DNA from: Hemileia vastatrix
Taxonomy: Eukaryota; Basidiomycota; Pucciniomycetes; Pucciniales; Zaghouaniaceae
Length of the DNA: 64,000 nucleotides
Direction of reading: 5' to 3'
NCBI GenBank assembly: GCA_030280995.1
Contig: JASXTE010000017.1
Span: 5,965,001-6,029,000 of the forward strand
Shown in pieces: positions 4,560 through 56,757 of the stretch. Each line of letters opens with the position of its first letter. Positions within the stretch are counted from its first letter, which is position 1. The notes below the pieces were generated by a model that saw only the letters and a program-made list of their open reading frames with translations, made no database searches and was not told the origin of the DNA. The position numbers were made by a program, and so were the translations under genes.

Positions 4560-5341
4560 TGATAGTATTTTTAAATATTACTCTTCATTGTTTTCCAAAC
4601 ATTTTTCAATTGGATTTAGGTCAGGCAATTGTGTTAGCCAGGTCATCTTGAAAAGAATTATAACAGATTAGAAATCTTGAGATAGCTTTGAGGTGTGCAT
4701 TGGAACATTATCTTCTATAAGGAAAAGGCAATTGCAAGGGTCAACTTTGGCAAGCCATGGAAGGAATGAGTCAAAGTAGACATTGTCTATGAAGGGCTTT
4801 AAAGTTTGTTAGTTGGATGGTTCCATGTGAAATTTTTTCGCTTCTCTGATGCCCAGACCAAAACTTGAGTTGATAGCTTACCAACTTCAAAGTTGCATTC
4901 ATCAGTCCATATAACTATCTTTCAATCTTCAATTGACAAGTGTGACATGTTGACCAGAAAAATGAAGTTGTCTTTCTTCATGAAAGGGATTGAGGTGAGG
5001 TTTTTTTTGATGACAACACATTTATTAAAACTAAGGTCATGAGTATGGAGGCAAACAGTTTGGCATCAAATTTTGAAGGTAAGACTGTCAGTCATCTCAT
5101 TCAAGGTCTTCTTTATGATTTCTAGTGAGGCTAATCATGATTTGATGCATGTCTCTTGGGACTGGTCATGATATGGGTGGCCAGGTTTTTCTAATGTTTT
5201 TAGTCTTCCCTTACTGCAGTATGTGGCAATAATTTGACACACAGTGGTTGGGTGGGACATTAAAATGGGCTGATGCTTGGGCTGTTCAGGAGCCTGAGGC
5301 TGCCATGCCTGCGATAAGTCCACACTCACCAGTTGTGAGTT
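4560..5341 (-). pseudogene. Tc1/mariner transposase relic
   Basis: Read on the minus strand from about 5341, an N-terminal helix-turn-helix remnant (HPTTVCQIIATYCSKGRL) is followed by catalytic blocks typical of Tc1 DDE transposases. These are W-T-D-E-C-N-F near 4890 (first Asp), IEDNVPMHTSK near 4695 (second Asp) and LPDLNPIE near 4620 (Glu). The coding frame is broken by stops and shifts throughout, so no full-length protein exists. The usual length for the family is about 340 residues and the relic covers roughly that span. I could not identify clear terminal inverted repeats. Confidence 0.8.
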
Positions 5342-5646
5342 ACTTCTTTGTGGAGTGACATGTCATGATAGGCACTTAAAAAGGTGCAAAAAAATAAGGG
5401 ATGATTTTTTATGGTAAATAATAAAGAAAAAAACAATGAGAAATAAATGAAAAAAATAAAAAAACTTGTTTAATGATAAAGTGAGACACAAAGAACCAAG
5501 GAACAAAGTTTGGAGGTGGCATCAGTAATGATGGTGGTTGACAATAAAGATGAAAAATTACAAAAATGAGGAATATGCATAAAAAGTGGCCAGAACATCT
5601 GTCCCCCCCCACTGTACAGTGGGAGGCCATTTATTTTTGTCACTTT
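5342..5646. other. AT-rich spacer, no gene recognised
   Basis: The stretch between the Tc1 relic and the MITE contains A-rich runs and a short C8 tract near 5601-5610. I see no coding or RNA signature. Confidence 0.5.
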
Positions 5647-5866
5647 CACCAGAAAAAAAAACATGGGCACCTGATAGCAGGTGCCAATCCCTATCTTTCA
5701 CCTAACTCAATTTCAGCTCAGCTGTAATTCTTCTGGAAAGACTGCACACTGAACAATGAGCACACAAGCTCACGCAATATCAAATCAAATTTACTATTAA
5801 ATCTAAGCTGAATATATGGATAGGCACCTACTAGAAGTGTTCCACTTAATTTTTGTTTTTTTGGTG
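5647..5866. mobile_element. MITE copy 1 (220 bp, TIRs, 3-bp TSD TTT)
   Basis: The ends are inverted repeats of roughly 45 bp, starting CACCAGAAAAA and containing GCAGGTGCCAATCCCT-like sequence; the right end reads ...TTTTTTTGGTG. TTT flanks both ends (5644-5646 and 5867-5869). The same element recurs at 57256-57467. It has no coding capacity. A 3-bp target duplication fits PIF/Harbinger-mobilised MITEs, which is inference. Confidence 0.8.
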
Positions 5867-5869
5867 TTT

Positions 5870-5878
5870 GATCCATCA

Positions 5879-5910
<32 letters not shown>

Positions 5911-6128
5911 GTTTTTTTCACTCTATTTTTCTTTTCTTCTCTGTTCACTAACTTTCCTCCTTTTTTTAATTCAAGATTTTATTTTCTTGCTCTTTCCCTG
6001 TCTTTGAATCCCTAGCTAAATTCCACTTTTTTTTTTTTTTTTTTTTTTTTAATATTTTTTTAATAATTTTTATTTTGGTGAAATTTCATATCCATTTGAT
6101 ACTCAAATTTTTTTTTATTATCATATTT

Positions 6129-15151: not shown

Positions 15152-15220
15152 CTATAATTAATTCATTGTTAGGTTGATGCAATTGATCATAAGAAGTTGG
15201 ATGACTCAGCAAGGTCTTAC
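15152..15220 (-). other. Intron-like segment in element A gag (69 nt)
   Basis: On the minus strand the segment begins GTAAGA and ends TTATAG. It holds CCTAAC, a perfect fungal branch-point match, ending about 18 nt before its end. It lies at the position equivalent to intron-like segments in B, C, E and F. Its length is a multiple of three, so removal keeps the Gag frame. Splicing itself is not shown. Confidence 0.45.
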
Positions 15221-15655
15221 CCCATTTCCCCTGCCTCTCCTTGGCTTTCCCCTGTAAGAGTGACTGCTGGATCCTTGTTGAGGAGGATTGTTGTAATTTT
15301 GGGCGTACCAATCCCATTTCCATTTGCTTACTGTAATTTTTTGGTCCTCCTCTTGTGCTGGAGGTGTTGCTATGGAATTGTTGGGTGCCACTGTTGGTGG
15401 TTGAGTCTTTATGTCCACTAGAGCTTGGTTGACTTCTATGAAACCTTGAGCTGCTTTCTTTTCCAGATTGTTGATCTGGTCCACTATTTTGTTGACTCTC
15501 ATTGTCAATGTGTTCAGTAGGGTGGATAGGGAGTGAACTTGTTCTTGTAATGTATTTTATGACTTTTTTATTGAAACCTGCTTTAAAAGCTTTTCCCTTT
15601 CCTCCAGAGACATTGGCGGAGTGTTGTTGATTATGGGAGAGTCCTGGCCCTCCAT
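15206..15655 (-). pseudogene. Overlapping +1-frame ORF of element A, one in-frame stop
   Basis: It starts at ATG 15655 (MEGQDSP), 88 nt after the Gag-Pol ATG and in the +1 frame. It shows the conserved blocks MSLEEREKLLK, SIKKS, LQEQVHSL, GFIEVNQALVDIK and VSKWKWDWY, then a basic RGKPRRGRG tail. One TAA at 15557-15559 interrupts it where B has a sense codon. From the LQ(E/D)Q block to NQA(L/M) the A and B products align over 48 residues without a gap. The function is unknown. A coiled coil plus basic tail could suit RNA binding or assembly, which is inference. Confidence 0.75.
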
Positions 15656-15743
15656 TTGAATGTCCTGTAACAGGTCTTTCAGCTCTAGGTCTTAAGTTAT
15701 AAGGTTTTGCCTTATTACTTACAATGTCATTGTTGTCACACAT

Positions 15744-19605: not shown

Positions 19606-22600
19606 TTATTTAGATTTAAATTTTTTCAAGAGATTTTTAAGATCAGAGATTTCATTTTCTGGAATCCACTGGTCATATTCACTTGATTTATTTTTAAATC
19701 TTAATAGATACTCAACTCCCTTTTCTTTTGTAAGGTGTCTCTTTTTAAGTATCTTTTCAATTTCTGCTTTTTCCACTATTTCTTCAGGTTGCTGTTTATG
19801 CCTTCCTGATCTTCTTGGAAAGAGAGCAGTATCATTAGAATGATATGGTTTTAAAAGAGAAATAGGAAATACTGGATGTTTTCTATCATAAGGTGCATAT
19901 AGAATAACCTCAACAGCATTATTACCAACCATCTTTTTAACTACAAATGGTCCAATGAATGGATCCTTCAATTTAACATTACCATTTAAATTGAAATGTA
20001 GCGTTGAAATAAGGACTTCATCACCCTCTTTGAACATTTGTTCTTTATGGGCTTTATCCCATCTTTTCTTTTCATACTCAAAAGCCTTATTTATACATTC
20101 TTGAGCATGTTTTCTGCATAATTCCTGCATCTGAAGAAAAGATTTAGTACCTGGATGAATATCCAATCTAGGTAACTTATTAAGAGTTTTAGCAGGGGTA
20201 TTAGGTACATAACCCAACCATAACTCAAATGGCTTTTTGCCAGTGACAGAATGTACTGTACTATTATATGCAAATTCTAAACCTGGGATAAGGGTTACCC
20301 AATCATGCGTGAATTTGTCATTGTCTTTAAAATTAAGACCAAAAGCACAGTATCTTCTTATCATATCTTCTAAGGTTTGTATCATTCTTTCTGCTAGCCC
20401 ATCAGTTTGTGGATGGTGTGCTGTAGAAAGTTTTAATTGACACCCTGAAACATCCATAAGTGACTTCCAGAACTCAGAAGTAAATTTAGGATCTCTGTCA
20501 GAAACTATTGCTTTGGGGAAACCTGCTGTATTTAACATTTGTGTCCACCATAAAAAAGCTAAGTCCTTTGCAGAAACCTCTTTGTGGGTAGGAATAAATT
20601 TACACATCTTTGTAAATCTATCTACAATTACCCAGCAGGAGTTATAACTTTTATGCCCTGCTATTGGCAAACCTGTTACAAAGTCCATGTTAATGATTTC
20701 CCATGGAGCTTTTGGTTGCTCAATTTGTTGTAATAAACCAGCTCTTTTTCCTGTTAATCTTTTAGATTTTTGACAAGAATCACATGTTTCAACATATTTC
20801 TGAACATCCTCAGACATGTTAATCCACCAAGCTGTGTTTTTTACTCTGGTTAATGTTTTATGGTAGTCAAAATGACCTGCTAATATATCATCATGACATA
20901 TACTTAACATTAACTCCTTCATTGAAGGGGGAATTACAATTACATTACTTAATTTTTTCCTGTAATATATAAAACCATCCTCAATGGAAAATTTTCCTTT
21001 CTCTAATTACTCTTTATACTTATTTGGTAATATTTTTATTAAAACATTCATTGAAGCATTAGATGGATCATTTAATATTGTAGTTAATTTACTTAAGTCA
21101 GGATCTGAATTATAATTATCAAGAATTGATTGCATAAATTCATCCTCAAGATCTACAATATAAATGCCATAAATGTTAATAATCTCTGATTCAGGAACAT
21201 AAGCAGGATTATCATCATTATTAGGCAGAGGTACTCTAGATAACAGATCTACATTAGAGTGCAAGGTTCCTGCTCTATGTGTAATAGTCATCCGTCCTCT
21301 GTATTCTTGTACAGCTAATTGCCATCTAAACATGTGTCTATTAGGAGTTTTCATGTTTAAGAGTGACTTAACTGCACTACAGTCAGTTATTAACTCAAAT
21401 TTTTGGTCTTCAAGGTAATAATGTAGCTTCCCAAGAGCCCATATGACTGCCAAAAATTCAAGTTGAGTAGTACCATATTTCAATTCACTACTTCTTAGAG
21501 TACATGAAATATAGCAAATTACTACTTCTGACATTTTACCTTCAATAAGTTGTTTTTGATGCAAAGCAGCACCCAGTCCAATAAAACTTGCATCTGTATA
21601 TAATACAAAAGGTAATTGGAAATCTGGTAATCCCAAGATAGGAGCTGTCATTAAACATTCTTTCAACTTATTAAAAGCTTATTGTCTTTCATTATTCCAA
21701 ATGAAAGCTTCTGATTTCTTTATCAGTGTGGTCAGTGGTGCAGCAATTGATTGGTAGTTTTTTATATATTGTCTATAATAACCACACATTCCAAGAAAAG
21801 ATTGTACATCCTTCACATTTTGAGGAATGCCAATATTCTTTATTGCAGCCACTTTATTTTGGTCTACACATATTTGTAAGCCAGATACAATATGACCAAG
21901 CACTTTTAAAGATTCAAACCCAAATTTACATTTTTTCAATGCAAGGGTCATTTTTATTTCATCCATTTTCTGAAATACTTTCCTTAAATGGATTAAGTGT
22001 TCATCAAAATTTTTAGAGAACACTATGATGTCATCAATGTATACCATTAACCATCCCTCAATCATTTCATTATGGAATGTTATATCCATTAACTTTTGAA
22101 ATACTGATGGAGCATTCTTTGGTCCAAATGGCATTCTGACATACTTATAAATTCCCATGTGTGTTGTTATCAACAAAAAGTTCTGTGAATTCTTTTCAAC
22201 AGGAATTTGATGGTACCCTTTATTTCCATCTAGGTAACTTATATTTTTAGCACCTTTATGGGTAGCATGTATAGAGGCAATCCTTGGCAAGGGATAAATA
22301 TCATCTACTGTAAATGTATTTAATGCTCTATAATCACCGCACAGTCTTGCTTTATCTTGTTCATAAGAAATCAACACTGGTGATATTACACAATATTTTG
22401 GTGTAATTTCAACCTTCTCAAGAATGTTCATTTTTAATAACATCTTAATATTATCCTCTATGTCTTTCCTCTTCATTGGTGAAGCAGGGTATGGTTTCTT
22501 TTTAAGACTAGCAGGAATATTATCCATATCACAGGTTAAACTAATTTTCATTTCATGATCTTTTACAAGGCCAAGTTCATTTGTACCATGTGCAAAAGCC

Positions 22601-24878
22601 ATTGGAAAAGCTTTAATTAATTCCAAAATATTATCTTTCTCATTTTTACTTATCTGAGTGCCAAATGATGCTTTTGAAATTTCTGTTTCCAGAAGTTCCA
22701 ACTCATTGGATTCTCTTCCTTTAGACGGGGAATTTGTTACTGACTCAATGTGTAAGACAGTGTTAAAAGAATTTATTTTAAATTTCCTTTTACCATTCAT
22801 GCCAATTGTAAAATTGTTATTAGCAGGGTCTAATTTTACACCAAATTTAGTCAGAATATCATTTCCAATGATAAAACAGTTACTACAATTTGTATTATCC
22901 ATTACTACAAAGTCACAAGTTACCCTTACATAACCATATTGGTGTTTAAAGAAAACAGCAGCTTTGTATTTACCAATGGGGTGTAGTACTGATCCAAAAC
23001 CTCTCCAATTTTTATTCTGAAGTGATTCAAGCTTAAACTTATATTCACTATCAATTTTCTGTAATGTATTAGTGGAAACAACTGAACCAGCAGCTCCTGT
23101 GTCCAATACTATATTAACATTTTCACCAGAAATGATAGCTGGAACCGTGATAGGTGTCATTCTAAAGTTATCAGCTTGTATATCCTTAATGATTTCAGCA
23201 TCCTCAAAATTCATTAAAGATTCATTTGAGTCCATATTTAATATTGGATTTTCAAAGATGGACAAATCATCTTCCAACATACAGACTTCATTTTCATCAC
23301 TATATGAGATATTGCTGTCATAATCACTTGATTCTTTACTTTTTTCAGTTTCAGTTTCAGATTCACTTTGATTTTCAACAATATTTATGTTTTTCTCACA
23401 TTTGTGACCTTTGACCCAAGGTTTGTTACACTTATAACAAGTATTTGTTTCATACTTTTTAGGTACTACAGGTGCAGTAGGTTTTTTCTGCTTCTCCTGA
23501 AGTGTTTTTGAATTCTGAGTTTTTACAGGTTCAACATTTTGCTTATAAGTGGAATACCTTGATTCATACTTATGGTTTAATAATATTTCATTGCAAATAT
23601 TAATAAAGTCAGAATATTCAGTAACATTTAATGTTCTAGCTACAACAATGTCTCTGACAGATATAGGTAATTTGTATATTATCTTATCTTTCCATAAGTT
23701 AAAATCCATATGAGGCTCAATGGCTTTTAATATTTTGTTTAAATTCATTAAAAATACCATAGGTTTGTCACCATTCAACGGATTATACCTAGTCTTCTCA
23801 TACAGTCTTTGCTGAGTAAGCCTGAATTTAGAACCTCCAAATTGTTTTTCAATAAGTTGTTTCCATTCAGCCCAAGAGTAGTCTCTACCCTCACTTAAGA
23901 CAGCTTCAAACCATAATAAAGCAACATCCTTAAATAAAGAAATTAATTTTGATGTTATTTCTTCATCTGGTAACTTATATGAGAATTTCAAGTTGTCAAT
24001 TCTTTGAATAAAATGTTGCCAATCAGAGCTGGCTTCCCCATCATAAGTTGGGTACTGATCTATCTTAGGCCAGTTCTTCTGATTGGATTTTATCTCACTA
24101 ATCTTAGGTAAATTCAACAACTCATTCACTTTTGATAAATGGTCTTGTATTTCTTCCTGCACGGATTTGTGACTTATATTTTCAGATTTGACACTACCAC
24201 CAGATGGTTTTAATTGTGGTGGTACAGGGAAGGAATGAGATTCACTTTTGCCAATGAAAGGATTATTATTATATTGATTATACTTATGATTATCCTGGTT
24301 CATCAGTAGATTGGCAGTTTCAATCTCAACTTTAGTTAATCTTTGTAGCAGCTCAGAGACACTTTGATTTGTCTGTGCAAAAGATAACTTTGTTCTTGAT
24401 TCAGTCTTTAATAAATGTGTTTCATATAATTTTTCTAACTCACAAAATTTGTTTGAAAGGTCATTATATTTATTACTCAATGAATCATATTTAAGAGTTA
24501 GAGACAAATGTTCTTTCTCTAATTCTTTATTACGTGTTGCTAATTGAGAAATGTTCAATGTTAAGGATGAAATTGTATCACTAGTGAGCTTAACTGTCTG
24601 TTCCTCACAATCAGTTATTCTATTCCACAATGCTGAAACAATTCTATGGACAGTTGGATTATTGTTAAAATATTCCATGTCCTCATTTTCAATTCTCTCA
24701 CTCTCCTGTGAACTTCTCATCTCACTAGTAGGTGGTTGCAACTGAGGATTAACTGTATTATCATTGTATATAGTACTTTTATTATGGACAAAAGACAAGT
24801 CAGGTGTATCTACTCTAAAACCTAAATTTCTTAAATCCTCCTCTATTTTTTGTACAGATTTAACATCAATAGAATTAC

Positions 24879-24930
24879 CTATATTGTAATTATCAGTATT
24901 ATGTCTAATCTGAGAGGGTAAGTTACTTAC
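24879..24930 (-). other. Intron-like segment in element B gag (52 nt)
   Basis: The minus strand reads GTAAGT at the start, ACTGATAAT about 15 nt before the end, and ATATAG at the end. GTAATTCTATTGA follows. The 52-nt length is 1 mod 3, so removal would shift Gag out of frame within about a dozen codons. The overlapping ORF's stop lies inside the donor, and exon 2 recreates a TAA there. Confidence 0.45.
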
Positions 24931-25388
24931 CAAGGGATGGTTGCCAGTCCTGATTTTTGGCGCTTTTTTCCCTTGTAAGGGTGAGCTGAGGAAGTCAGAT
25001 GAGGGGGTGGATCCCTGTTGCAACTGTGGCTTGTCCACTGTTGGTGAAACCAGTCCCATTTCCATTTGTCTACCAGGATTTTCTCCTGGGAGTGAGTGGA
25101 CTCTCCTTGGGTAGGGGGTTGCTGATTTGATTGACTGGGCTGGCCTCCCTTTAATTCTGCCATTGCCTGATTCATCTGCTGAAATCCTACCTTGCAATTG
25201 TTTTGCAACTGCTCTACTTCTTTGAACATGAGAGATTTTGATTCCTCCAACTTCAGAACCTGTTTGGCCAGGTGGGACAGTTGATCCTGAAGAGGAGGAG
25301 ACGTCTTTTTGATAGTTATCTTTTTTAAGAGGGCGTCCTTTTCCTCTATACTCATGCTTTCTGGCTGGGGGTACTGTTGTCCCTCCAT
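24927..25388 (-). CDS. Overlapping +1-frame ORF of element B, 153 aa
   Basis: It starts at ATG 25388 in a strong context (ACCATGG), 85 nt after the Gag-Pol ATG. Blocks: MEGQQYPQPES; MSIEEKDALLKKITIKK (residues 12-28); coiled-coil-like LQDQLSHLAKQVLKLEESKS and following (33-62); GFQQMNQAMAELK (68-80); Gln/Pro/Ser-rich linker (81-100); ILVDKWKWDW (104-113); PYKGKKRQKSG basic tail (137-147); end TIPW. Its stop TAA overlaps a GTAAGT donor. It matches element A better in this frame than in the Gag frame. The ATG at 25448 is open upstream, but its leading segment is not conserved. I do not recognise the family; a role in RNA or capsid assembly is a guess. Confidence 0.75.
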   Translation of the reverse strand: MEGQQYPQPESMSIEEKDALLKKITIKKTSPPLQDQLSHLAKQVLKLEESKSLMFKEVEQLQNNCKVGFQQMNQAMAELKGGQPSQSNQQPPTQGESTHSQEKILVDKWKWDWFHQQWTSHSCNRDPPPHLTSSAHPYKGKKRQKSGLATIPW

Positions 25389-25473
25389 GGTGATGTCCTG
25401 GAAAGTTTTTGTTAGCTTTAGACCTGGTATTATAAGCAGGCTGTTCACTTACACTATCCTGGGGAGCACTCAT

Positions 25474-25984
25474 ATTGTTCAGAATAACAATATTTTATGT
25501 CTAAAAAAGGAAAAAACTCTATGGAATTAGTAGACAAAAGATATTAGTAATTATATTACTAATAAAAAAGCAATGGAGCTTACCCTGAATTTATATCTTT
25601 ATTTATTTAAATAAAATATAAGAAAAATTCGAAAAAATCTGTTAAAAATATAATAATAAGTTTAACTAGACCTCTATAAGGGTGAATAACTAGCTTACCA
25701 AGCTTTAGCCAAATACCAATTTAATTGGGTGTTATATTGGTGTCCAAATACCAAGTGAAATTGGGTTTATATTGGGTACAGTTACTACTGTAAATATCTA
25801 ATTTTTATGATAAAAAATTAGTACAATTATTATAAGGGTTCTTTTCCGCAATCAATGAGTTATGATGACCCACTAATATGCAGCAGACCCAAATATTTGG
25901 TTAATTTTGAGTTGTACTAAGGTAAAAATCACGTCCCAAGGCTTATACTAAATAATAAGTAAAATATAAGGAAAGACCCCCAAT
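25474..25984 (-). other. Element B 5' leader with primer-binding-like site
   Basis: On the minus strand 25970-25984 reads ATTGGGGGTCTTTCC directly after the LTR. From its third base it starts TGGGGG, as expected for pairing to a tRNA CCA end. The remainder is AT-rich and I see no gene in it. Confidence 0.6.
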
Positions 25985-28385: not shown

Positions 28386-31300
28386 CTAAGATTTTTTCTT
28401 TTTGTATTTTTTCAACAGAGCAGGCAGATTTGAAATTTCTTTGCCAGGTATCCATGCATCATGTTCAGATGATTTGTTCTTATATCTCAATAAATATTCA
28501 GTACCTCTTTCAGAAGTGATAATTCTATCATTGAGAATTTTATCAATTTCTGCTGTTTCTGTGACTTCCTGAGGGTTCTTCTTAGGTCTTCCTCTTCTTT
28601 TTGGAAATAAGTCACTGTTGGAAGTATAAGGTTTAAGCAAAGAAATGGGAAAGACAGGATGTTTCCTATCATATGGAGAATACAATACAACTTCTACTGC
28701 ATTATCACCAACCATTCTTTTAACAACAAATGGTCCTACAAAAGGATCTTTTAATTTGTGGTTACCTTGTAAATTGAAATGGACAGTAGAGATCAACACT
28801 TCATCACCCTTGTTAAATGTGTATTCCTTATGGGATTTATCCCATCTTTTCTTTTCATATTCAAATGCTTTATCAATACAACTCTGAGCATGTTTTCTGC
28901 ATAGCTGTTGCATTTGCATAAAAGATTTTACACCAGGATGTAGTTCCAACTTAGGTAATTTATTATTGAGAATCTGAGCAGGAGTGTTTGGGACATAACC
29001 TAACCAAAGCTCAAAAGGCTTTTTCTCAGTGACAGAATGAACAGTGCTATTATATGCAAATTCAAGACCAGGCAAAAGAGTGACCCAATCATGAGTAAAT
29101 CTGTCATTATCTTTATATTCTAAACCAAAGGCACAATACCTTCTAATCATATCTTCCAGAGTTTGAATCATTCTTTCAGCTAGACCATCAGTCTGAGGAT
29201 GGTGAGCTGTAGACAATTTTAACTCACAGCCACAAATATCCATCAAAGAGGTCCAAAACTCAGAAGTGAATTTTGGATCCCTATCAGAGATAATGGCTTT
29301 TGGAAAACCAATAATATTAAACATGTAAGACCACCATAAGAAAGCTAATTCTTTGGTGGATACATCTTTGTGGGTTGGAATAAATTTGCACATTTTTGTG
29401 AATCTATCAACTATTACCCAACAAGAGTTAAAGCTGTCTTTACCTGCAACAGGAAGACCAGTGACAAAATCCATATTAATGATTTGCCAGGGAGCACTAG
29501 GTGCTTCAATATGTTGTAATAACCCTGCTCTCTTGCCTGTTAACTTTTTAGATTTTTGGCAGGAATCACAAGATTCAACATATAATTTTGTGTCTTCAGA
29601 CATATTAGCCCACCATGCAGTGTTTTTGATTCTAATCAATGTTTTTTCAAGATCAAAATGACCAGCTAATATGTCATCATGACAAAGTTTTAGGATAGTT
29701 TCTTTCATTGAAGGAGGAATAACAATTACATTGGTAAGCTTCCTTCTATAATAAATATAACCATCTTCAATAGAAAACTTTCCTTTATTTAAAGCATTTT
29801 GGTATTTTGCAGGAAGAGTTTTTATTAATGCTTGAATTGAAGCATTCTTAGGATCATTCAAAATAGTAACTAATTTATTTAAGTCAGAATCTTTATCATA
29901 TGAATCCAGTATTAACTGTAATAACTCTTCTTCCATATCAACTATAAATATACCATGTATATGAACAGTGTCATCCTCAGGTACATAAGCAGGATTGGAG
30001 TCATTATTTGGCAGAGGCAATCTGGAGAGCATATCAACATTAGAGTGAACATTTCCAGCTCTGTGGATAATAGTCATCCTTCCTCTGTATTCCTGAACAG
30101 CAAGTTGCCACCTGAACATATGTCTGTTAGGTGTTTTGAGGTTTAAGAGAGATTTCACAGCACTACAGTCAGTTACCAACTCAAATTTTTGGTCATCCAA
30201 GTAGTAATGAAGTTTCTCAAGAGCCCAAACAACTGCTAAGCACTCCAATTGAGTGGCACCATATTTCAATTCACTATTTCTTAAGGTTCTTGAAATATAA
30301 CAAATTACAACCTCTGAGGATTTATCATTAATAATTTGCTTTTGGTGAAGGGCAGCACCCAGACCCATAAAGCTAGCATCTGTATAAAGTACAAATGGCT
30401 TGTTAAAATCTGGGAGAGCCAATATAGGGGCTGTCATTAAGCAATTTTTTAATGTATTAAAAGCTTTCTGACAGTCATCATTCCAGAGAAAAGCAACATC
30501 TTTTCTGGTTAGTTTTGTAAGAGGCAAGGCTATGACCTGATAATTTTTAATATATTGTCTATAATAGCCACACATACCTAAAAAACTTTGGATTTCTCTT
30601 ACAGAAGTTGGTGCTTTCACATTTTGAGTGGCAGCAACTTTATTATGGTCTACACAAATTTGTAAGCCTGACACAACATGGCCAAGGACTTTCAAAGATT
30701 GAAAACCAAATTTACACTTTTTTAAAGATAAGGTCATATTGATCTCATCCATTTTTTGGAAAACTCTATTTAAATGAATCATATGTTCATCAAAAGTTTT
30801 AGAAAAAACAATAATATCATCAATATAAACCATGAGCCAACCTTCAATAATTTCTTGATGGAAAGTGTTATCCATGACTTTCTGGAAAACTGAAGGAGCA
30901 TTTTTAGGGCCAAATGGCATCCTAACATACTTATATATTCCCATATGAGTAGCAATAAGCAAAAAATTTTGAGAATTTTTCTCAACTGGAACTTGATGAT
31001 AACCTTTATTACCATCCAGACAACTAATAAATTTTGCACCTTGCAAGGTAGCATGTATTGAATTAATTCTGGGTAAAGGATAAATATCATCAACAGTATA
31101 AGTATTTAAAGCTCTGTAATCTCCACATAATCTAGCTTTATCTTTTTCATAAGAAATTAAGACTGGGGAGATGACACAATATTTGGGGGTGACATCCACT
31201 TTTTCAATGATATTCATTTTCAATAATGTTTCAATATTATCTTCAATATCTTTTCTTTTTGATGGAGAAGCAGGATATGGTTTTTTCTTAAGGGAAGGAG

Positions 31301-34300
31301 GAATATCACTCAAATTACAGGATAAGGTAATTTTCATCTCTTCCTGAACAATTCCCAAGACATGAGAACCATGAGCAAAAGCCATAGGGAAAGAGGTAAT
31401 AGAGGCAACAATAAAATCCTTTTGTTCATTAGTTAAATGATCACCAAAAGAAGCGGTATTTATTTCATGTAATAAATCATCCATTTCAGTTGTTGTTCTA
31501 CCTTTACATTGGGTGAGTGAGTTACAAGATTTCAACAAATGCCCAGAAGGTTTAGGAGAAGAAATTTTGAATTTTCTTTTCCCATTCATTCCTAATGTAA
31601 AGCAATTATTTGCTGGGTCCAGTTTCACACCAAACATTGTTAAAATATCATTTCCCATAATAAACCAATTGCTCAAATTATCATTTTTCATGACAACAAA
31701 CTCACAAATAGCTCTGACAAAACCACCATTATATTTGAAGAATACAGAGGTTTTGTATTTGCCAATAGGAAATAAGGTAGAACCATACCCTCTCCATTTT
31801 TCAGAAGTTATAGGCAATAATTTACTCAAATAATCCTTATCCACTGAAGCCAAAGCTTTTTCAGATACTACACTTCCTCCAGCACCAGAATCAAGAACTA
31901 CATCAACATTTTTACCATTAATGATAACAGGTGCCTTTAAAGGGGATATAGGAATAGAATTGTTAGTAATATCTTTAATTATCTCAGCATTTTCTACTGA
32001 AGATAAATTCAATACACAATCTTCAGATATATTATTTAAATAATGGACATCATGTTCCAACATTAAAACATCTTTAACAGATTCATTGTCATAGGAGATA
32101 TTACTTTCACAGTCACTGGAAGAATTATTGACATCAAGTTCAACTTCATCAGTGTCTTCATTTTGTTCAACAAGATGGATTTTCTTGTCACAAACATGAC
32201 CCTTCTGCCACGGTTTGTTACATTTATAACAAGTATTTGTTGCATATTTTTTAGGTGCAACTGGGGCAGAGGGTTTACCAGATTTTTCTGGGAGCTTTAT
32301 AGAAGGTTTATTCTGATCATTATAAGATTTACTAAGGTAATTCTTTGGTTCATATCTATGGTTGAGTAGTACTTCATTACAGATATTAATGAAAGAAGAA
32401 TTTTCCCTTACATGCTCAGTTCTAGCAACAATCAAATCCCTAAGAGAATTTGGTAATTTATACAAGATTTTATCTCTCCAAATATCATAATCCATCTTTG
32501 GATCAATTGCTCTAAGGATTTTAGTTATTTTCATCAGAAAAACAATGGGCTTTTCAACAGAGGAGGATACATATCTAGTATTCTCATACAGTCTTTGCTG
32601 AGCTAACCTGAATTTTGAACCACCAAACTGATTCTCAATCAAGGATTTCCAATCATTCCATGTATAATGATTGTTATCTAAGAGGACAGATTCATACCAC
32701 ATCAAGGCTACATTGGAAAATAAAGAAATTAGCTTAGAAACAATTTCCTCATCAGGTAGTTTATAAGATCTCTTTAAATTATCAATTCTTTGGATAAAGT
32801 GTTGCCAATCAGAGGAAGAATCACCATCAAAGGTAGGATATTGGTCTAACTTAGGCCAATTTTTCTGACTACTGGGATGGTCCACTTTTTGGTTTGAATT
32901 ATTTATTAGTAATAATTCCTGAAGTTTAGCCAGGTGTTCAGAAATTTCATTATTTACAGAAACAGCTGGTGCATGACCATCACAAGATTTTTTGCTAGTA
33001 GCAAAAGATTTTACAGACTCATTGTCAGTTTGTTTAATGGTTGAAATATGAGGAAGAAAGGATGAACTTTGTTCAGGTTTTTTCCCTTTATTTTTATGCA
33101 GTTTACTGGCAGAAATCTCATTTAATTCATTATTGATGGTTAAGGTTGAGAACTTTTCCTGTAGGTCAGACACATAGTTTCTTATTCTTGGAATTTCAGA
33201 CATCTGGTCATTCACTTTTGCAAGAGATAGAACATTTCTGTCCTCAGAAACTGAGTGTTTTGTACTTAGTGCATGGAAGTCATTTTTTAGTTTCTTCAAC
33301 TCATTTTGTAGAGATTTTATTTCATTTTTGAATGAATAATTTTCCTCAATAAGGGGTTTCAATTCACTCAATGTCTTATGCAGACTGATATTTCTATCTG
33401 AGATAGCTCTATGGTCACTTCTTATTTGTTTTTGTTGACTAAGAACAATATTCAAGGTTTCTTTGATTTTTAAATAAGCTGTATCTTGTACAGAAGAACT
33501 CACTCTACATTGCAAGTGTAAATTATTTAATCTATCATTTTCATGGATTAACACATCTCTCACATGTTTGTCTTTCACAATATTAAAATCAAGGGTATCT
33601 TTCAAAATTTCCTCAGAAGTTTTTTCAATTAAGTTATAGATTTCAGGGGGAACAGAATCATTTTTAATTGCAAGAGAAGGATTAATTAAAGATGTAGAAG
33701 TTAAATGTAAAGGTTCATCAAATGACAATTTGCTAATTACATCAATAGGGCTACTAGTTACAGGAAGCTGTCTTTTAACAGGTTTAACTGTTCTTTCACC
33801 ATGTTCAATAATATTACCTGCAGAAGAAGATTTATTAGAAAACATACCCAAGTGACTATCAACCAAATTACTTACAATGGCAGAGGAGGAAACTTCCCCT
33901 GGGACTGGGTTTGGGATTGTGCTTGGGCCTTCTTTCTCCTGCTTTGTTGGTAGAGATGAGGAGGTGGATGGAAATTGGGTGTTCTGGATGGGCCAGGCTG
34001 ATGATGAGGAGGGTGTTGCACATTCTGTTGGTAGTGACTCATTAGATAATCCCATTTCCATTGCTCTACTTCCATAGTATTTGGATTTTGGATGGTTGAG
34101 CTGGGTGGCTGTGAAGGTTGAGCCTGAAATTGAAGCTGATTGGGAGGCAATTGAGGAGGGGCCTGGGCCTGAATCTGGTTCCTGAGTTCTTGGACCTGAT
34201 CCCACAATGTGTCTACCTTTGCTTTGTACGTCATATTTTCTGTCTTCAACTCTTTTATATGACTGGAGAGGTTGCTGATTTGTTGTGGCAGAGGAAGCTT

Positions 34301-34553
34301 TTTTATTTTGAAGCCTTTTGGAAGACCTTCTTGAGGCACTAGAGGCTTTACTTCCTTCTGTGGTACTGGGGGAAGGGGGTTTGGTTTGTTTGCATTTCCT
34401 GTCATTTCCACATCCTGCAGTATGAGAATTCTTTGTGTTAGCATAAGATTTTTTATGACCAACTTTAGAAGAACTTACCGTGTCAGCATCATAGTCAATT
34501 TCTATCTCATCCACTTGCATGTTATCCATTTTTTCTGTCAAATTGTTGGACAT
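28386..34553 (-). CDS. Element C Gag-Pol fusion polyprotein, 2,055 aa, intact
   Basis: One frame from ATG 34553 to a stop at 28386 encodes a complete chromovirus polyprotein. A Ser/Lys-rich disordered N-terminus spans 1-260 and coiled coils about 300-470. The capsid-like part (SDWQHFIQRIDNLKRSYKLP) spans about 560-735. The zinc knuckle has C775, C778, H786 and C788. Protease D888 sits in LDSGAGG. RT carries Y-I-D-D at 1243-1246. RNase H has D1392, E1437 and D1462. The integrase zinc finger has H1625, H1632, C1662 and C1665, and its DDE triad is D1695, D1757 and E1793. The GPY/F module lies at 1937-1976 and the chromodomain at 2001-2052. All catalytic residues expected are present. There is no gag/pol stop or frameshift. 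About 550 residues before the capsid is far longer than a usual Ty3 Gag. Confidence 0.97.
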   Translation of the reverse strand: MSNNLTEKMDNMQVDEIEIDYDADTVSSSKVGHKKSYANTKNSHTAGCGNDRKCKQTKPPSPSTTEGSKASSASRRSSKRLQNKKASSATTNQQPLQSYKRVEDRKYDVQSKGRHIVGSGPRTQEPDSGPGPSSIASQSASISGSTFTATQLNHPKSKYYGSRAMEMGLSNESLPTECATPSSSSAWPIQNTQFPSTSSSLPTKQEKEGPSTIPNPVPGEVSSSAIVSNLVDSHLGMFSNKSSSAGNIIEHGERTVKPVKRQLPVTSSPIDVISKLSFDEPLHLTSTSLINPSLAIKNDSVPPEIYNLIEKTSEEILKDTLDFNIVKDKHVRDVLIHENDRLNNLHLQCRVSSSVQDTAYLKIKETLNIVLSQQKQIRSDHRAISDRNISLHKTLSELKPLIEENYSFKNEIKSLQNELKKLKNDFHALSTKHSVSEDRNVLSLAKVNDQMSEIPRIRNYVSDLQEKFSTLTINNELNEISASKLHKNKGKKPEQSSSFLPHISTIKQTDNESVKSFATSKKSCDGHAPAVSVNNEISEHLAKLQELLLINNSNQKVDHPSSQKNWPKLDQYPTFDGDSSSDWQHFIQRIDNLKRSYKLPDEEIVSKLISLFSNVALMWYESVLLDNNHYTWNDWKSLIENQFGGSKFRLAQQRLYENTRYVSSSVEKPIVFLMKITKILRAIDPKMDYDIWRDKILYKLPNSLRDLIVARTEHVRENSSFINICNEVLLNHRYEPKNYLSKSYNDQNKPSIKLPEKSGKPSAPVAPKKYATNTCYKCNKPWQKGHVCDKKIHLVEQNEDTDEVELDVNNSSSDCESNISYDNESVKDVLMLEHDVHYLNNISEDCVLNLSSVENAEIIKDITNNSIPISPLKAPVIINGKNVDVVLDSGAGGSVVSEKALASVDKDYLSKLLPITSEKWRGYGSTLFPIGKYKTSVFFKYNGGFVRAICEFVVMKNDNLSNWFIMGNDILTMFGVKLDPANNCFTLGMNGKRKFKISSPKPSGHLLKSCNSLTQCKGRTTTEMDDLLHEINTASFGDHLTNEQKDFIVASITSFPMAFAHGSHVLGIVQEEMKITLSCNLSDIPPSLKKKPYPASPSKRKDIEDNIETLLKMNIIEKVDVTPKYCVISPVLISYEKDKARLCGDYRALNTYTVDDIYPLPRINSIHATLQGAKFISCLDGNKGYHQVPVEKNSQNFLLIATHMGIYKYVRMPFGPKNAPSVFQKVMDNTFHQEIIEGWLMVYIDDIIVFSKTFDEHMIHLNRVFQKMDEINMTLSLKKCKFGFQSLKVLGHVVSGLQICVDHNKVAATQNVKAPTSVREIQSFLGMCGYYRQYIKNYQVIALPLTKLTRKDVAFLWNDDCQKAFNTLKNCLMTAPILALPDFNKPFVLYTDASFMGLGAALHQKQIINDKSSEVVICYISRTLRNSELKYGATQLECLAVVWALEKLHYYLDDQKFELVTDCSAVKSLLNLKTPNRHMFRWQLAVQEYRGRMTIIHRAGNVHSNVDMLSRLPLPNNDSNPAYVPEDDTVHIHGIFIVDMEEELLQLILDSYDKDSDLNKLVTILNDPKNASIQALIKTLPAKYQNALNKGKFSIEDGYIYYRRKLTNVIVIPPSMKETILKLCHDDILAGHFDLEKTLIRIKNTAWWANMSEDTKLYVESCDSCQKSKKLTGKRAGLLQHIEAPSAPWQIINMDFVTGLPVAGKDSFNSCWVIVDRFTKMCKFIPTHKDVSTKELAFLWWSYMFNIIGFPKAIISDRDPKFTSEFWTSLMDICGCELKLSTAHHPQTDGLAERMIQTLEDMIRRYCAFGLEYKDNDRFTHDWVTLLPGLEFAYNSTVHSVTEKKPFELWLGYVPNTPAQILNNKLPKLELHPGVKSFMQMQQLCRKHAQSCIDKAFEYEKKRWDKSHKEYTFNKGDEVLISTVHFNLQGNHKLKDPFVGPFVVKRMVGDNAVEVVLYSPYDRKHPVFPISLLKPYTSNSDLFPKRRGRPKKNPQEVTETAEIDKILNDRIITSERGTEYLLRYKNKSSEHDAWIPGKEISNLPALLKKYKKKKS
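33818..33875 (-). other. Intron-like segment in element C gag (58 nt)
   Basis: The minus strand reads GTAAGT, then TTCTAAT about 20 nt before the end, a pyrimidine run, and CTGCAG. GTAATATTATTGA follows. Size, branch-point match and tract all suit a short fungal intron. Its length is 1 mod 3, so splicing would end Gag-Pol after 18 more codons but leave the overlapping ORF's end unchanged. Confidence 0.5.
33872..34405 (-). CDS. Overlapping +1-frame ORF of element C, 177 aa
   Basis: The start is ATG 34405 (MTGNANKPNP), 148 nt after the Gag-Pol ATG. This ATG is chosen because E and F carry a homologous ATG after the same DVE- or VE-type codons. Residues 1-35 are Pro/Lys-rich. FKIKKLPLPQQISNL (32-46) opens a coiled coil to about 80 (IKELKTENMTYKAKVDTLW). 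A Pro/Gln-rich linker covers 81-112, then MEVEQWKWDY (111-120), His/Pro-rich sequence and SRRKKAQAQS (155-164). It ends GKFPPLPL, and the TAA lies inside a GTAAGT donor. The same plan as the B product, despite low identity, supports a real protein. The function is unknown. Confidence 0.75.
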   Translation of the reverse strand: MTGNANKPNPLPPVPQKEVKPLVPQEGLPKGFKIKKLPLPQQISNLSSHIKELKTENMTYKAKVDTLWDQVQELRNQIQAQAPPQLPPNQLQFQAQPSQPPSSTIQNPNTMEVEQWKWDYLMSHYQQNVQHPPHHQPGPSRTPNFHPPPHLYQQSRRKKAQAQSQTQSQGKFPPLPL

Positions 34554-35251
34554 ACTAGTGGGAAGATTAATATTTTACTTTGTACTTTATAAAAAATAAT
34601 CAAAGTTAGTCAATAATTTGCTCCAAATAATATAAAAAAATTTTTTTAATTAATTAAATTATAGAAAAATTAACTTTCAATATAAAGTAATAATTAAAAA
34701 ATTAATTTTTTTTAAAAAAAATGGATTGCAAGTTTAAATTGGGAATAACAAGTTAGTTAATTCAACCAATTAATTACCAATATTAAATATGGCAATATAT
34801 TGGGACTAAGCACAATGTACTTTTAAGTCAACCAAAAATTAACAATAATTAATAATAAAAAAAAATTAAATTAATAATTCAATTTGTATTAATAATAATG
34901 TCAATTCTTCTAGGACTAAGAGGATTTAACACTCTATAATGGTCAACTAGGAAAAAAAAAATTTTTTTAAAAATTGAACACTTACACTCAGTGAATCAGC
35001 AATTAAGCCACAATCACTGTTATTGCAATAAAAATATAGTAATATGAGTGAGAGGCGCAAAGGTGAACTTACTATAGTGATCGAAAAATCACTTCAAAAT
35101 AGTATAAAAATTAATATTATATAAACCTAATATGTCGAACCCAAGTTCGAAACACAGTCGCGGCAAAAGTTTCGTTTTGCTAGGTGGTCCGTGCGTTTTG
35201 TCGTTCGTCGCCAGGCTTCGATCGTCGTTGTCGTTTGGAAAGGCCCTCAGT
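34554..35251 (-). other. Element C 5' leader with primer-binding-like site and CpG-dense patch
   Basis: The bases after the LTR (35237-35251, minus strand) read ACTGAGGGCCTTTCC. The adjacent 35140-35240 stretch is unusually GC- and CpG-rich for this window (repeated tcgtcg motifs), and then gives way to AT-rich leader. No ORF is supported. Confidence 0.6.
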
Positions 35252-41369: not shown

Positions 41370-41427
41370 CTGCAGAAGAAGTCTTATTAGAAAACATTCC
41401 CAAGTGACTATCAACCAAATTACTTAC
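41370..41427 (-). other. Intron-like segment in element F gag (58 nt)
   Basis: GTAAGT, TTCTAAT and CTTCTTCTGCAG sit at the same spacing as in element C, followed by GTAATATTATTGA. The splice-like signals survive although the host gene is dead. Confidence 0.4.
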
Positions 41428-41957
41428 CATGGCAGAGGAGGAAACTTCCCCTTAGATTGAGTTTGGGATTGTGCTTGGGCCTTCTTTCTCCTGCCTTGTT
41501 GGTAAGGATGAGGAGGAGGATGGAAATTGGGTGTTCTAGATGGGCCAGGCTGATGATGAGGAGGATGTTGCACATTCTGCTGGTAGTGACTCATTTGATA
41601 ATCCCATTTCCATTGCTCTACATCCATAGTACTTTGATTTTGGATGGAGGAGCTGGGGGGCTGTGAAGGTTGAGCCTGAAACTGAGGCTGATTGGGAGGC
41701 AACTGAGGAGGGTCCTGGGCCTGATTTTGGTTCCTGAGTTCCTGAACTTGATCCCACAAGGTGTCTACTTTTGCCTTGTATTTCATGTTTTCTGTCTTCA
41801 GTTCTTTGATGTGACTCTACAGATTGCTGATTTGCTGGGGAAGAGGAAGTTTTATTATTTTGAATCCTTTTGGAAGACCTCCTTGAGGTACTGGAGGTTT
41901 TACTTCCTTCTGTTGTGCTGGGGGAAGGGGGTTTGATTTGTTTACATCTCCTGTCAT
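41424..41957 (-). pseudogene. Overlapping +1-frame ORF of element F, one in-frame stop
   Basis: The start is ATG 41957 (MTGDVNKSNPLPP), 148 nt after the Gag-Pol ATG as in C. One TAG at 41817-41819 falls between ISNL and SHIKELKTENMKYK; otherwise 178 codons run to the stop in the GTAAGT donor. It keeps MDVEQWKWDY and GRRKKAQAQS, ending GKFPPLPW. It is close to the C product, so it adds little independent evidence beyond showing slow decay. Confidence 0.7.
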
Positions 41958-42105
41958 TTCCACATCCTGAATTATGTGAATTTTTCTTGTTAGCATAAGA
42001 TTTTTTATTTTCAACTTTAGAAGAACTCACAGTATCAGCATCATAATCAATTTCAATTTCATCCACTTGCATGTTATCCATTTTCTCAGCCAAATTGTTG
42101 GACAT

Positions 42106-48320: not shown

Positions 48321-49008
48321 ATAGGGAGCCTTTCCAAAAAATGAAGTTGACTACGATACTTGCAACAAGCGACATAGCGCACGGACCACCCAACCAAGAA
48401 GTAAACTTTTGCCGCAACCGTGTTTCAAACTTGGGTTCAATCATTTAGGTTTATATTAAATTAAATCATATATTATTTTGAAGTGATTTTACAATCACTA
48501 TAGTAAGTTAACCTTTGCACCTCTCACTCATATTATTATATTTTTACTGCAATAACAGTGTTTGTGGCTTAATTGCTGATTCACTGAGTGTAAGTGTTCC
48601 TTATTTTTTTAATTCTTTTCCCAGTTGACCATAATAGAGTAAAACCCTTAGTCCTAGAGGACAATTAAATTTTAATAAATTATTAAATTAATTTTATTAT
48701 TATTTTCTGCTTATTGGTTGACCATAACAGTACTCAGTACTTAGTCCCAATATTGCCAATATATTAATTTTGGTATTAATTATTTTGGTTGACTTATAAA
48801 CCTTTATTGGTTGGTCCCATTTTAATTATTGTTATTTCTTAATAAAAATAATTGTAATTACATTTATTTGTATTACATTTTTTTTAATAAATTGATTTTT
48901 GATAAAATTTTTTTTTTGTTTTGTTAAAAATTCAATAATTTATATTTTATTTTGAAATTAAAAATTTAAATCATTAAAATAATTTAGATTTTTTTTTTCA
49001 CAGTTTAA
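48321..49008 (+). other. Element E 5' leader with primer-binding-like site
   Basis: ATAGGGAGCCTTTCC (48321-48335) directly follows the LTR. A GC-richer patch (about 48340-48430) corresponds to the CpG-dense patch of C. No gene is visible before ATG 49009. Confidence 0.6.
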
Positions 49009-49147
49009 ATGTCAAGTAGTTTGGCTAACAGCAGGGATAGCTTACATGTGGATGAAATTGAAGTGGATGGTGACACTGAATCTGTAGGTTCTTCTAAATT
49101 AACTTACAAAAATTATTCAGCTGATAAAAAACCTTCAGGACGTGGAA

Positions 49148-49654
49148 ATGGAAGGAGAAGTGGCAAACCCCCATCACCAAACACCTCTGAAAGAAGTAAA
49201 ACCTCTAATAAATCATGAAAATCAACTAAAAGGTATAAAAATAAGAAAGATACCACTGACACAACAAGTAAACAACCTGTACAGTCACATCAAAGAACTG
49301 AGAGCAGAAAGTATGAAGTACAAGGCAAGAGTAGACACACTCTGGAAGCAGATGCAGGAATTATTAGATCCCAAACAGGCTCAACCTCCTCATTTCCCAG
49401 CCTCCCAGCCTCAGCCTCAACCTCAGCCAAATAAAGTACCCAGCTCCTTCACGCAAAATCAAAGCACTTTGCTGGTGGAGAAGTGGAAATGGGATTTCTT
49501 GATGAGCCATTACCAACAGAATGTTCAGCAACCAACAGCTCAACACCCTGGCCCATCCAGGACACCAACCTACCATCCATCTCCTCAGTCCCATCCTTAT
49601 CAGGGAGGCAGAAGAAAGAAGGCACAGGGGAAGTTTCCTCCCTTGCCATGGTGA
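49148..49654 (+). CDS. Overlapping +1-frame ORF of element E, 168 aa, still open
   Basis: It starts at ATG 49148 (MEGEVANPHHQTPLKEVKPL), 139 nt after the Gag-Pol ATG in the +1 frame. It keeps KIRKIPLTQQVNNL, a coiled coil (HIKELRAESMKYKARVDTLW), a Pro/Gln linker, LLVEKWKWDF and GGRRKKAQGKFPPLPW. The TGA stop lies inside a GTGAGT donor. The Gag frame over the same DNA has a stop at 49216, yet this frame is unbroken. Translation today is doubtful because the element is decayed. It may be a fossil that happened to escape stops. Confidence 0.7.
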   Translation: MEGEVANPHHQTPLKEVKPLINHENQLKGIKIRKIPLTQQVNNLYSHIKELRAESMKYKARVDTLWKQMQELLDPKQAQPPHFPASQPQPQPQPNKVPSSFTQNQSTLLVEKWKWDFLMSHYQQNVQQPTAQHPGPSRTPTYHPSPQSHPYQGGRRKKAQGKFPPLPW

Positions 49655-49705
49655 GTAATGTGTTTGATAAACATGTTGGTATGTATAATAACAAATCTTC
49701 TTCAG
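49651..49705 (+). other. Intron-like segment in element E gag (55 nt)
   Basis: It reads GTGAGT at the start, ATAATAAC about 14 nt before the end, and CTTCTTCAG at the end. GTAATATTGTGGA follows. The position matches the segments in A, B, C and F, and the length is 1 mod 3. Confidence 0.42.
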
Positions 49706-56659: not shown

Positions 56660-56757
56660 GAACTAAAAAAATAAAAAATAAAAAATAAAAAATAAAAAAT
56701 AAAAAATAAAAAATAAAAAATAAAAAATAAAAAATAAAAAATAAAAAATAAAAAATA
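56660..56757. repeat. TAAAAAA heptamer array
   Basis: After the second GAACT copy, about 13 near-perfect TAAAAAA units run to about 56757. It continues the A-rich block interrupted by element E. Confidence 0.85.

What the first reader, a model, noticed from the sequence alone, without database searches (positions are those of the whole stretch)
24927..25388. A conserved second ORF overprinted in the +1 frame of Gag in Gypsy elements
Seen: elements A, B, C, E and F all carry a +1-frame ORF starting 85-148 nt after the Gag-Pol ATG, about 150-178 codons long. All share IKK-x3-LQxQ-like sequence, a coiled coil, a Pro/Gln linker, W-K-W-D-(W/Y) and a basic tail. In one stretch, A (MSLEEREKLLKQVSIKK) and B (MSIEEKDALLKKITIKK) share 10 of 17 residues, most others being conservative. 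The Gag frame over the same bases shares about 5 of 18. Ser is kept although its codon is TCT in A and AGT in B. From LQ(E/D)Q to NQA(L/M) the products align over 48 residues without a gap. Inference: the overlapping frame is the constrained one, and the disordered Gag N-terminus is tolerating it. I know of no described counterpart.
Basis: partly seen in the sequence, partly recalled or inferred. Interest (0 to 1): 0.88.

Follow-up and report, generated by a model that had tools for sequence, protein, structure and literature searches.

The report
Spliced second gene hidden in Gag
A group of jumping genes, related to ones known from rust fungi, hides a second protein message inside its main gene in another reading frame and reaches it by cutting a short intron out of the RNA, much as complex retroviruses do.

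Summary
The overlapping +1-frame ORF ("X") is real, but it is a spliced exon rather than a separately started ORF. A 55-64-nt intron (3n+1) near the Gag start joins the first 7-25 Gag codons to X; a second intron (52-58 nt) begins at the X stop codon. Genomic copies lacking exactly these introns exist: 7 and 5 places in the B family, 17 and 29 in the C family (11 and 38 distinct places), reversed-pattern controls 0. The eleven B-family insertions fetched are LTR-flanked, nine with 5-bp target duplications, so they are reverse-transcribed spliced RNAs. X is under purifying selection (dNN/dNS 0.13-0.74); Gag residues over the same bases mostly drift, yet that frame is kept open. Best reading: unspliced RNA is genome and Gag-Pol message; spliced RNA makes X, an accessory protein. 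A Rev- or CERV-like role for X is the likeliest function but is inferred. Closest described precedent: CERV of the nematode element Cer1.

The parts
21679..25473 (-). Element B, Gag-Pol ORF from the shared start codon (1264 aa as one ORF; further pol ORFs follow)
   Evidence: RVT_1 1e-24
25453..25473 (-). B exon 1: first 7 codons (MSAPQDS) shared by Gag and X
   Evidence: in-frame fusion read directly in spliced genomic copies
25398..25452 (-). B intron 1, 55 nt: GTAAGT ... GCTAAC ... CCAG; read in frame as Gag when retained
   Evidence: exactly absent in L009-L015
24927..25397 (-).
24879..24930 (-). B intron 2, 52 nt: GTAAGT at the X stop codon ... CTGAT ... ATATAG; after splicing X still reads W then TAA
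   Evidence: exactly absent in L010/L018, L016, L017, L019, L020
25639..25698 (-). B leader intron a, 60 nt (GTAAGC ... AACAG)
   Evidence: Absent in L022 and L024; coordinates checked
25519..25583 (-). B leader intron b, 65 nt (GTAAGC ... CATAG)
   Evidence: Absent in L022 and L025; L024 seems to use an acceptor further downstream; coordinates checked
28386..34553 (-). Element C, intact Gag-Pol ORF, 2055 aa, with chromodomain
34479..34553 (-). C exon 1 (25 codons shared by Gag and X)
34415..34478 (-). C intron 1, 64 nt
   Evidence: exactly absent in 12 of 12 fetched copies out of 17 places
33872..34414 (-). C exon 2 = X (205 aa with exon 1 in spliced copies)
33818..33875 (-). C intron 2, 58 nt
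   Evidence: junction present at 29 places; 58 nt absent in 5 of the 12 intron-1-less copies
41967..42030 (-). E intron 1, 64 nt (GTGAGT donor)
41424..41966 (-). E X exon, one in-frame stop
41370..41427 (-). E intron 2, 58 nt
49084..49138 (+). F intron 1, 55 nt (GTAGGT donor)
49139..49654 (+). F X exon, intact although the Gag frame has stops
49651..49705 (+). F intron 2, 55 nt (GTGAGT ... TTCAG), found by eye
   Evidence: not in the strict scan
15665..15722 (-). A intron 1, 58 nt (GTAAGT ... ACAG); no strict branch-point match
   Evidence: strict signature absent
15206..15664 (-). A X exon, in-frame stop after codon 32 counted from MEG; no GT donor at the place where the others have one

Best explanation
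X is an accessory gene of a group of Ty3/Gypsy chromodomain elements, expressed by alternative splicing. Shown from DNA: two short introns flank the X exon; both have been removed from some RNAs at exactly the predicted sites, because such RNAs were reverse-transcribed and reinserted (B and C families); removal of intron 1 puts the Gag start codon in frame with X (163 aa in B, 205 aa in C); X is under purifying selection; the Gag frame across X is kept open but its residues mostly drift. Inferred: unspliced RNA serves as genome and Gag-Pol message, while spliced RNA makes X; X, with a predicted long helix, a weaker helix around W-K-W-D and a basic tail, is most likely an RNA-linked regulator (about 40%, Rev- or CERV-like) that lets intron-containing genomic RNA escape splicing or leave the nucleus. 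The confidence below is for a spliced, translated accessory protein, not for that role.
For: Scan of both strands for GTRRGT + CTRAY + YAG: 9 hits, 7 of them at X borders in B, C, E and F. All five intron-1 lengths (58, 55, 64, 64, 55) and the four intron-2 lengths (52, 58, 58, 55; F by eye) are 3n+1. Exact spliced junctions in the genome: 7, 5, 17 and 29 places, reversed controls 0. Eleven of eleven fetched B-family insertions have an LTR pair, nine a 5-bp TSD. Copies lacking intron 1 only, intron 2 only, or both all occur. X reads open from the Gag ATG in 5 of 7 B-type and 7 of 12 C-type intron-1-less copies. X dNN/dNS: B-L027 0.13, C-E 0.16, B-L026 0.26, E-F 0.45, C-F 0.46, A-B 0.74, all bootstrap intervals below 1; Gag dNN/dSN 0.39 in C-E and 0.99-1.61 in the other five pairs. 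The excess of differences switches from Gag position 3 downstream to Gag position 1 (= X position 3) inside X (diverged C-type copies). Gag-frame stops given X: 0 in A, B, C against 6.1, 5.1, 7.2 expected.
Against: No RNA or peptide data were available. No X relative found in the protein collection (0 of 989 candidates at E<=1) or viral contigs, and no family above its cut-off (best Pfam bZIP_1 1.3e-4, below cut-off; best PDB sequence Abraxas 0.0025; NCBIfam), so all evidence comes from one genome. Single-copy intron signatures are not rare: mean 6.85 per simulated window; codon shuffles with a signature B 83, C 402, E 223, F 1463 of 5000. A lacks a strict branch point and has a broken X; E has a stop in X. 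In Gag-frame alignments of the far pairs the position switch is absent in A-F and B-E and flat in A-C; close C-type copies show no clear excess (L045 3, 11, 12; L046 2, 7, 4). The second OLGenie ratios (against SS sites) rest on about 3-4 sites and decide nothing. The number of unspliced copies was not obtained. The role of X is inferred from shape and logic; the model is low confidence (mean pLDDT 61.8).
Confidence: 0.86

Rival explanations
1. X is translated from its own internal ATG on the unspliced RNA by leaky scanning.
For: In B the X ATG (ACCATGG) is the next ATG after Gag's, and M-E/T-G is shared by all five copies.
Against: Homology in the X frame continues upstream of that ATG (D-I/V-x-M) to the splice acceptor; A has one and C and E have several intervening ATGs; exact spliced copies exist. 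Minor internal initiation is not excluded.
Confidence: 0.07
2. X is really the N-terminal domain of Gag: both introns are normally removed, X is joined to the rest of Gag, and the Gag frame over X is never translated.
For: Two introns flank X; Gag-frame residues over X are barely conserved in five of six pairs.
Against: With both introns removed X hits TAA at once in B, C, E and F, and intron-1-less copies with or without intron 2 end X at ...IPW or ...FPPLPW. The Gag frame is open in A, B, C against 5-7 expected stops, and one uninterrupted 2055-aa frame runs through X in C. An unrecognised distant acceptor is not excluded.
Confidence: 0.05
3. The +1 ORF is a by-product of Gag composition with no protein function.
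For: ORF length alone is weak under codon shuffles.
Against: Differences fall on X third positions (7, 3, 25 of 156 codons in B-L027; 36, 8, 18 by Gag position in C-E) while downstream Gag shows the normal pattern; X dNN/dNS below 1 in six of six pairs.
Confidence: 0.02
4. X is a structural particle protein (coiled coil plus basic tail that holds nucleic acid and docks on capsid), like the virion-associated proteins of caulimovirids, rather than an RNA export or splicing regulator.
For: Predicted helix 42-83, helix 111-132 and basic tail. The resemblance to such proteins is recalled, not tested.
Against: Expression from spliced RNA is a route used by known regulators (PMC10309623 sections 9 and 15; PMC9769392 abstract); nothing tested here favours docking.
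Confidence: 0.2
5. The introns' main purpose is to switch Gag-Pol off: spliced RNA cannot make Gag-Pol, and loss of intron 2 alone gives a truncated Gag (192 codons in B).
For: Four B-family copies lack intron 2 only and read as 192-codon ORFs (one has ATT in place of ATG); BARE1 splices within gag to make Gag only (PMC3735527 passages).
Against: Does not explain selection on X residues. Could act alongside X.
Confidence: 0.15

Closest known systems
CERV of Cer1 (C. elegans Ty3/Gypsy element), PMC10309623
   Same: Spliced mRNA; protein shares the GAG start and first exons; one exon in a frame different from gag; genomic RNA has no stop between gag and pol and keeps splice sites (abstract and outline, sections 6, 9, 15 and passages read).
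   Different: CERV is 517 aa with five exons, exon 5 back in the polyprotein frame, and a cysteine-rich loop. X is 163-205 aa, almost wholly one out-of-frame exon. The sequences were not compared.
BARE1 gag splicing (Copia, barley), PMC3735527
   Same: Small facultative intron (104 nt) at the end of gag shifts the frame and blocks pol (passages read).
   Different: Product is Gag alone; no second overlapping protein.
Grev of equine infectious anaemia virus, PMC9769392
   Same: First 18 Gag residues joined by splicing to another protein part, a nuclear regulator (abstract and outline read).
   Different: The second part is the end of Rev, not an overprinted gag segment.
Additional ORFs of plant LTR elements, PMC7264820
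   Same: Extra proteins in LTR elements, some from spliced RNA (passages read).
   Different: [quoted passage not shown] the word overlap does not occur in the main text.
Ogre elements (splicing between ORFs; cited within PMC3735527)
   Same: Intron in a Ty3/Gypsy element.
   Different: Known here only from that citation and recall; the primary paper is not held.

Membership tests
Ty3/Gypsy chromodomain element (host of X) | PR-RT-RNaseH-IN order with chromodomain | tested here: met
   Element C: RVT_1, RT_RNaseH, Integrase_H2C2 and Chromo above cut-off, in that order; rve and protease models below their cut-offs
Ty3/Gypsy chromodomain element (host of X) | LTR pair and 5-bp target duplication | tested here: met
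   Direct repeat pairs around A, B, C, F; 11 of 11 fetched insertions have LTR pairs and 9 show TSDs
CERV-type spliced accessory gene | Protein from spliced RNA sharing the Gag start codon | tested here: met
   Met at DNA level: spliced genomic copies with continuous ORF; the RNA and protein themselves were not seen
CERV-type spliced accessory gene | Exon in a frame other than gag | tested here: met
   X is the +1 frame in 5 of 5 window copies
CERV-type spliced accessory gene | Sequence or fold kinship with CERV | not tested
   CERV sequence was not fetched
CERV-type spliced accessory gene | Required for export of unspliced RNA | not testable with these tools
   Needs cells
Rev-like RNA export factor | Basic RNA-binding stretch, multimerising helix, nuclear export signal | tested here: inconclusive
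   Basic tail and long helix present; hydrophobic spacing in the helix fits a heptad as well as an export signal (pattern recalled, no predictor run)
Caulimovirid virion-associated protein | Coiled coil plus capsid-anchoring basic tail | not tested
   Resemblance recalled only

The most novel reading that the evidence does not exclude
A lineage of apparently fungal Ty3/Gypsy elements has evolved complex-retrovirus gene expression on its own: at least four facultative introns, a gag N-terminus reduced to a spacer that double-codes an exon, and a home-made Rev analogue that controls the balance of spliced and genomic RNA. Its trail of reinserted spliced copies is a fossil record of splicing choices.
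Probability: 0.38. Interest if true: 0.9.

Novelty: new variant of a known kind. Interest (0 to 1): 0.8.

Why it matters
LTR retrotransposons are usually drawn as gag-pol only. Here an element that looks like a plain single-ORF Gypsy holds a selected second protein, reached only through an intron that annotation would read as coding Gag. Standard annotation would hide such genes. The elements also test how an intron-containing retroelement keeps its genome unspliced, a question studied mainly in animal retroviruses, and reinserted spliced copies let splice sites be read from DNA without RNA data. If X is Rev-like, regulators of genomic RNA arose separately in nematode, vertebrate-viral and apparently fungal retroelements.

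Tried and rejected
Relatives outside the genome: protein search with an X alignment, 989 candidates, none at E<=1; viral contigs with X, RT (single and alignment), capsid and integrase queries, none confirmed (5 of 8 scans used); genome contigs with the RT alignment, none. Gag-Pol gave two distant proteins whose DNA could not be reached. Pfam, NCBIfam, PDB sequence: weak scores, mostly on the helical part, none above a curated cut-off. No fold search was run, since the model is low confidence. ORF length as proof: rejected. Strict intron signature per copy as proof: rejected; the spliced copies carry the case. Leader introns in C-type copies: candidates by eye in the window leader, but no clean removal in 20 C-type loci (one of them, L041, has a large leader deletion). 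Literature: eight searches, read as listings, showed no spliced gag-overlapping gene in a fungal element; most subscription papers are not held. The count of unspliced B copies and the A-type junction search stayed unanswered; the F-type junction was never sent.

Full report
What was checked. The window holds several minus- and plus-strand copies of one group of Ty3/Gypsy elements with chromodomain. At the given coordinates (minus strand) lies a 153-codon ORF in the +1 frame of Gag. tblastn with the X proteins of B, C, E and F finds five copies: A 15212-15655, B 24930-25388, C 33875-34444, E 41430-41996, F 49112-49651.

Chance. An open +1 frame of this length is not by itself striking: with Gag codons shuffled synonymously, 177 of 20000 shuffles reach B's open stretch, 1304 reach C's, 4053 A's and 6023 E's; F was not run. 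The evidence is in how the copies differ. In the overlap, differences pile up at Gag position 1, which is X position 3: C-E 36, 8, 18 by Gag position over 189 codons; C-F 77, 42, 43 over 178. Downstream Gag shows the ordinary pattern: C-E 15, 8, 31 over 218; C-F 29, 26, 68 over 510. For C-E, C-F, E-F and A-B the switch appears whether copies are aligned in the Gag frame or as plain nucleotides. Of the six far pairs aligned in the Gag frame, A-E, B-C and B-F show it, A-C is flat, and A-F (55, 58, 74) and B-E (66, 50, 68) do not; such alignments are unsure. Genomic copies give the cleanest cases: B against L027 differs at X positions 1, 2, 3 by 7, 3, 25 of 156; against L026 by 15, 9, 39 of about 146. 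Diverged C-type copies behave alike (L032 10, 12, 31; L033 9, 12, 20; L043 10, 17, 34; L048 9, 10, 31; L049 9, 10, 33), while closer ones have few differences and no clear excess (L045 3, 11, 12; L046 2, 7, 4).

Selection by class. A small OLGenie-style count (own code, transition weight 2, codon bootstrap) gives X dNN/dNS of 0.16 (C-E), 0.46 (C-F), 0.45 (E-F), 0.74 (A-B), 0.26 (B-L026), 0.13 (B-L027), all intervals below 1. For Gag, dNN/dSN is 0.39 (0.16-0.81) in C-E and 0.99, 1.13, 1.61, 1.26, 1.15 in the others. The alternative ratios against doubly synonymous sites rest on 3-4 sites and are uninformative. So X residues are kept, and Gag residues over the same bases mostly are not, C-E being the exception. 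The Gag frame is still kept open: shuffling X codons synonymously would give 6.1, 5.1 and 7.2 Gag stops in A, B, C, where none is seen (1, 15 and 0 of 20000 shuffles as low), and 8.9 and 7.8 in E and F, where two each are seen (9 and 25 of 20000). Both frames therefore appear to be in use: one for its residues, one chiefly as an open spacer.

The intron. The X-frame homology runs upstream of the shared ATG as D-(I/V)-x-M-(E/T)-G and begins exactly at a YAG acceptor. Upstream lie a GTAAGT-like donor at a Gag codon boundary and, in B, C and E, a GCTAAC branch site. The intron lengths are 58, 55, 64, 64 and 55 (A, B, C, E, F), all 3n+1, so removal puts the Gag start in frame with X in five of five copies. 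At the other end the X stop codon lies within a second donor in B, C, E and F, and an acceptor follows 52, 58, 58 and 55 nt on, again 3n+1 (F by eye). A scan of both strands for a strict signature finds nine places, seven of them at X borders. A first-order Markov window gives 6.85 on average anywhere, and the chance expectation of donors within 3 nt of the five X stops is 0.0019, against three seen, two of which (C, E) are close relatives. Per copy the signature is not rare under codon shuffling (B 83, C 402, E 223, F 1463 of 5000; absent in A).

Proof from the genome. If these introns are real, RNA that lost them may have been reverse-transcribed. The window's assembly (747.6 Mb) was searched for the joined exon flanks with up to three mismatches; the same letters read backwards served as control. 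B junction 1: 7 places, control 0. B junction 2: 5 places, control 0, one of them the same insertion as a junction-1 hit. C junction 1: 17 places, control 0. C junction 2: 29 places, control 0; 8 of the 29 belong to junction-1 insertions, so 38 places are distinct, and two pairs of insertions lie within 20 kb of each other and may be local duplicates. Alignments show exact loss of 55 nt (7 of 7), 52 nt (5 of 5), 64 nt (12 of 12 fetched of 17) and 58 nt (5 of those 12). Eleven B-type insertions were fetched: all have an LTR pair (98.4-99.9% identical in nine, 94.0 and 96.4% in L026 and L027), and nine show 5-bp target duplications, four as printed and five after moving the LTR edge by one base; L026 and L027 do not. 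They are thus best read as retro-copies of spliced RNA. L022 lacks both coding introns and two more in the leader; L025 lacks leader intron b and intron 1; L024 lacks leader a, intron 1 and leader b with another acceptor. Copies lacking only intron 1, only intron 2 (four B-type, eight C-type fetched), or both all occur, so the two are removed independently. In 5 of 7 B-type and 7 of 12 C-type intron-1-less copies the Gag start codon opens directly into a complete X (163 and 205 aa); in six the frame is broken, and in one (L041) the start codon was not found beside a large leader deletion.

How it most likely works. Shown from DNA: the splice sites, the fused reading frame, the selection. Inferred: unspliced RNA is packaged and also translated as Gag-Pol; the introns' presence in most recent copies (seven of the eight top X matches L001-L008, the window copy among them, keep intron 1) requires an unspliced genome. 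Spliced RNA makes X. AlphaFold2 on five sequences gives a confident helix at 42-83, a weaker helix at 111-132 covering W-K-W-D and disorder elsewhere (mean pLDDT 61.8, pTM 0.26); profile searches give weak, mostly helical matches only. With a basic tail this suits an oligomeric RNA-linked protein. An element that keeps up to four introns in its genome needs a way to spare some RNA from splicing or nuclear retention; a Rev- or CERV-like role fits best (about 0.4), a particle protein about 0.2, and other roles remain.

Comparison. CERV of Cer1 is made from a spliced five-exon mRNA, shares exons with gag, uses exon 4 in a unique frame and is required for export of genomic RNA (PMC10309623; abstract, sections 6, 9, 15 and passages). 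The arrangement is therefore of a known kind, but in an apparently different kind of host, in a compact single-exon form, with clear dual-frame selection. BARE1 (PMC3735527, passages), Grev (PMC9769392, abstract) and plant additional ORFs (PMC7264820, passages) are more distant parallels. Eight literature searches, read as listings, showed no fungal case.

Limits. One genome; no RNA; host unnamed, fungal only by its nearest named relatives; unspliced copy number unknown beyond 18594 first-look candidates for X, of which 150 were scored and all matched without internal stops (those are the best-scoring and so biased to intact X). The A-type and F-type junctions were not tested in the genome.

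Noticed in passing
49009-51915: Element F differs from C far more in the gag 5' part (162 differences over 178 codons) than downstream (123 over 510), as if F were a recombinant of two sub-families.
   Followed up: partly
45607-47048 and 56657-58062: Dense self-similar direct repeats (satellite-like) on both sides of element F.
   Followed up: no
175-4038: Broken plus-strand ORFs that look like a degraded Copia-type pol (family recalled, not tested).
   Followed up: no
19609-20922: Integrase has a 77% identical protein (P0030) in a MAG called uncultured Paraburkholderia, probably eukaryotic DNA binned into a bacterium; it may point to the true host group.
   Followed up: no
L021 1916-7693: This intron-1-less insertion also lacks a clean 1.3-kb block of pol (B element positions 4697-5998); not checked for splice sites.
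   Followed up: no
L024, 5' leader: Leader intron b appears removed with a different acceptor further downstream, so acceptor choice may vary.
   Followed up: partly
L028-L031: Copies lacking only intron 2 carry a 192-codon truncated Gag frame with a shared new tail; possible dominant-negative Gag or plain by-product.
   Followed up: partly
C leader 34554-35250; F leader 48311-49008: GTAAGT...AACAG and GTAAGTG...CTAG/CCAG stretches shared by C and F look like leader introns, but no fetched C-type copy shows clean loss.
   Followed up: partly
25053-25064: Gag MEMG and X WKWD are encoded by the same bases and both are kept, a spot where both frames may matter.
   Followed up: partly
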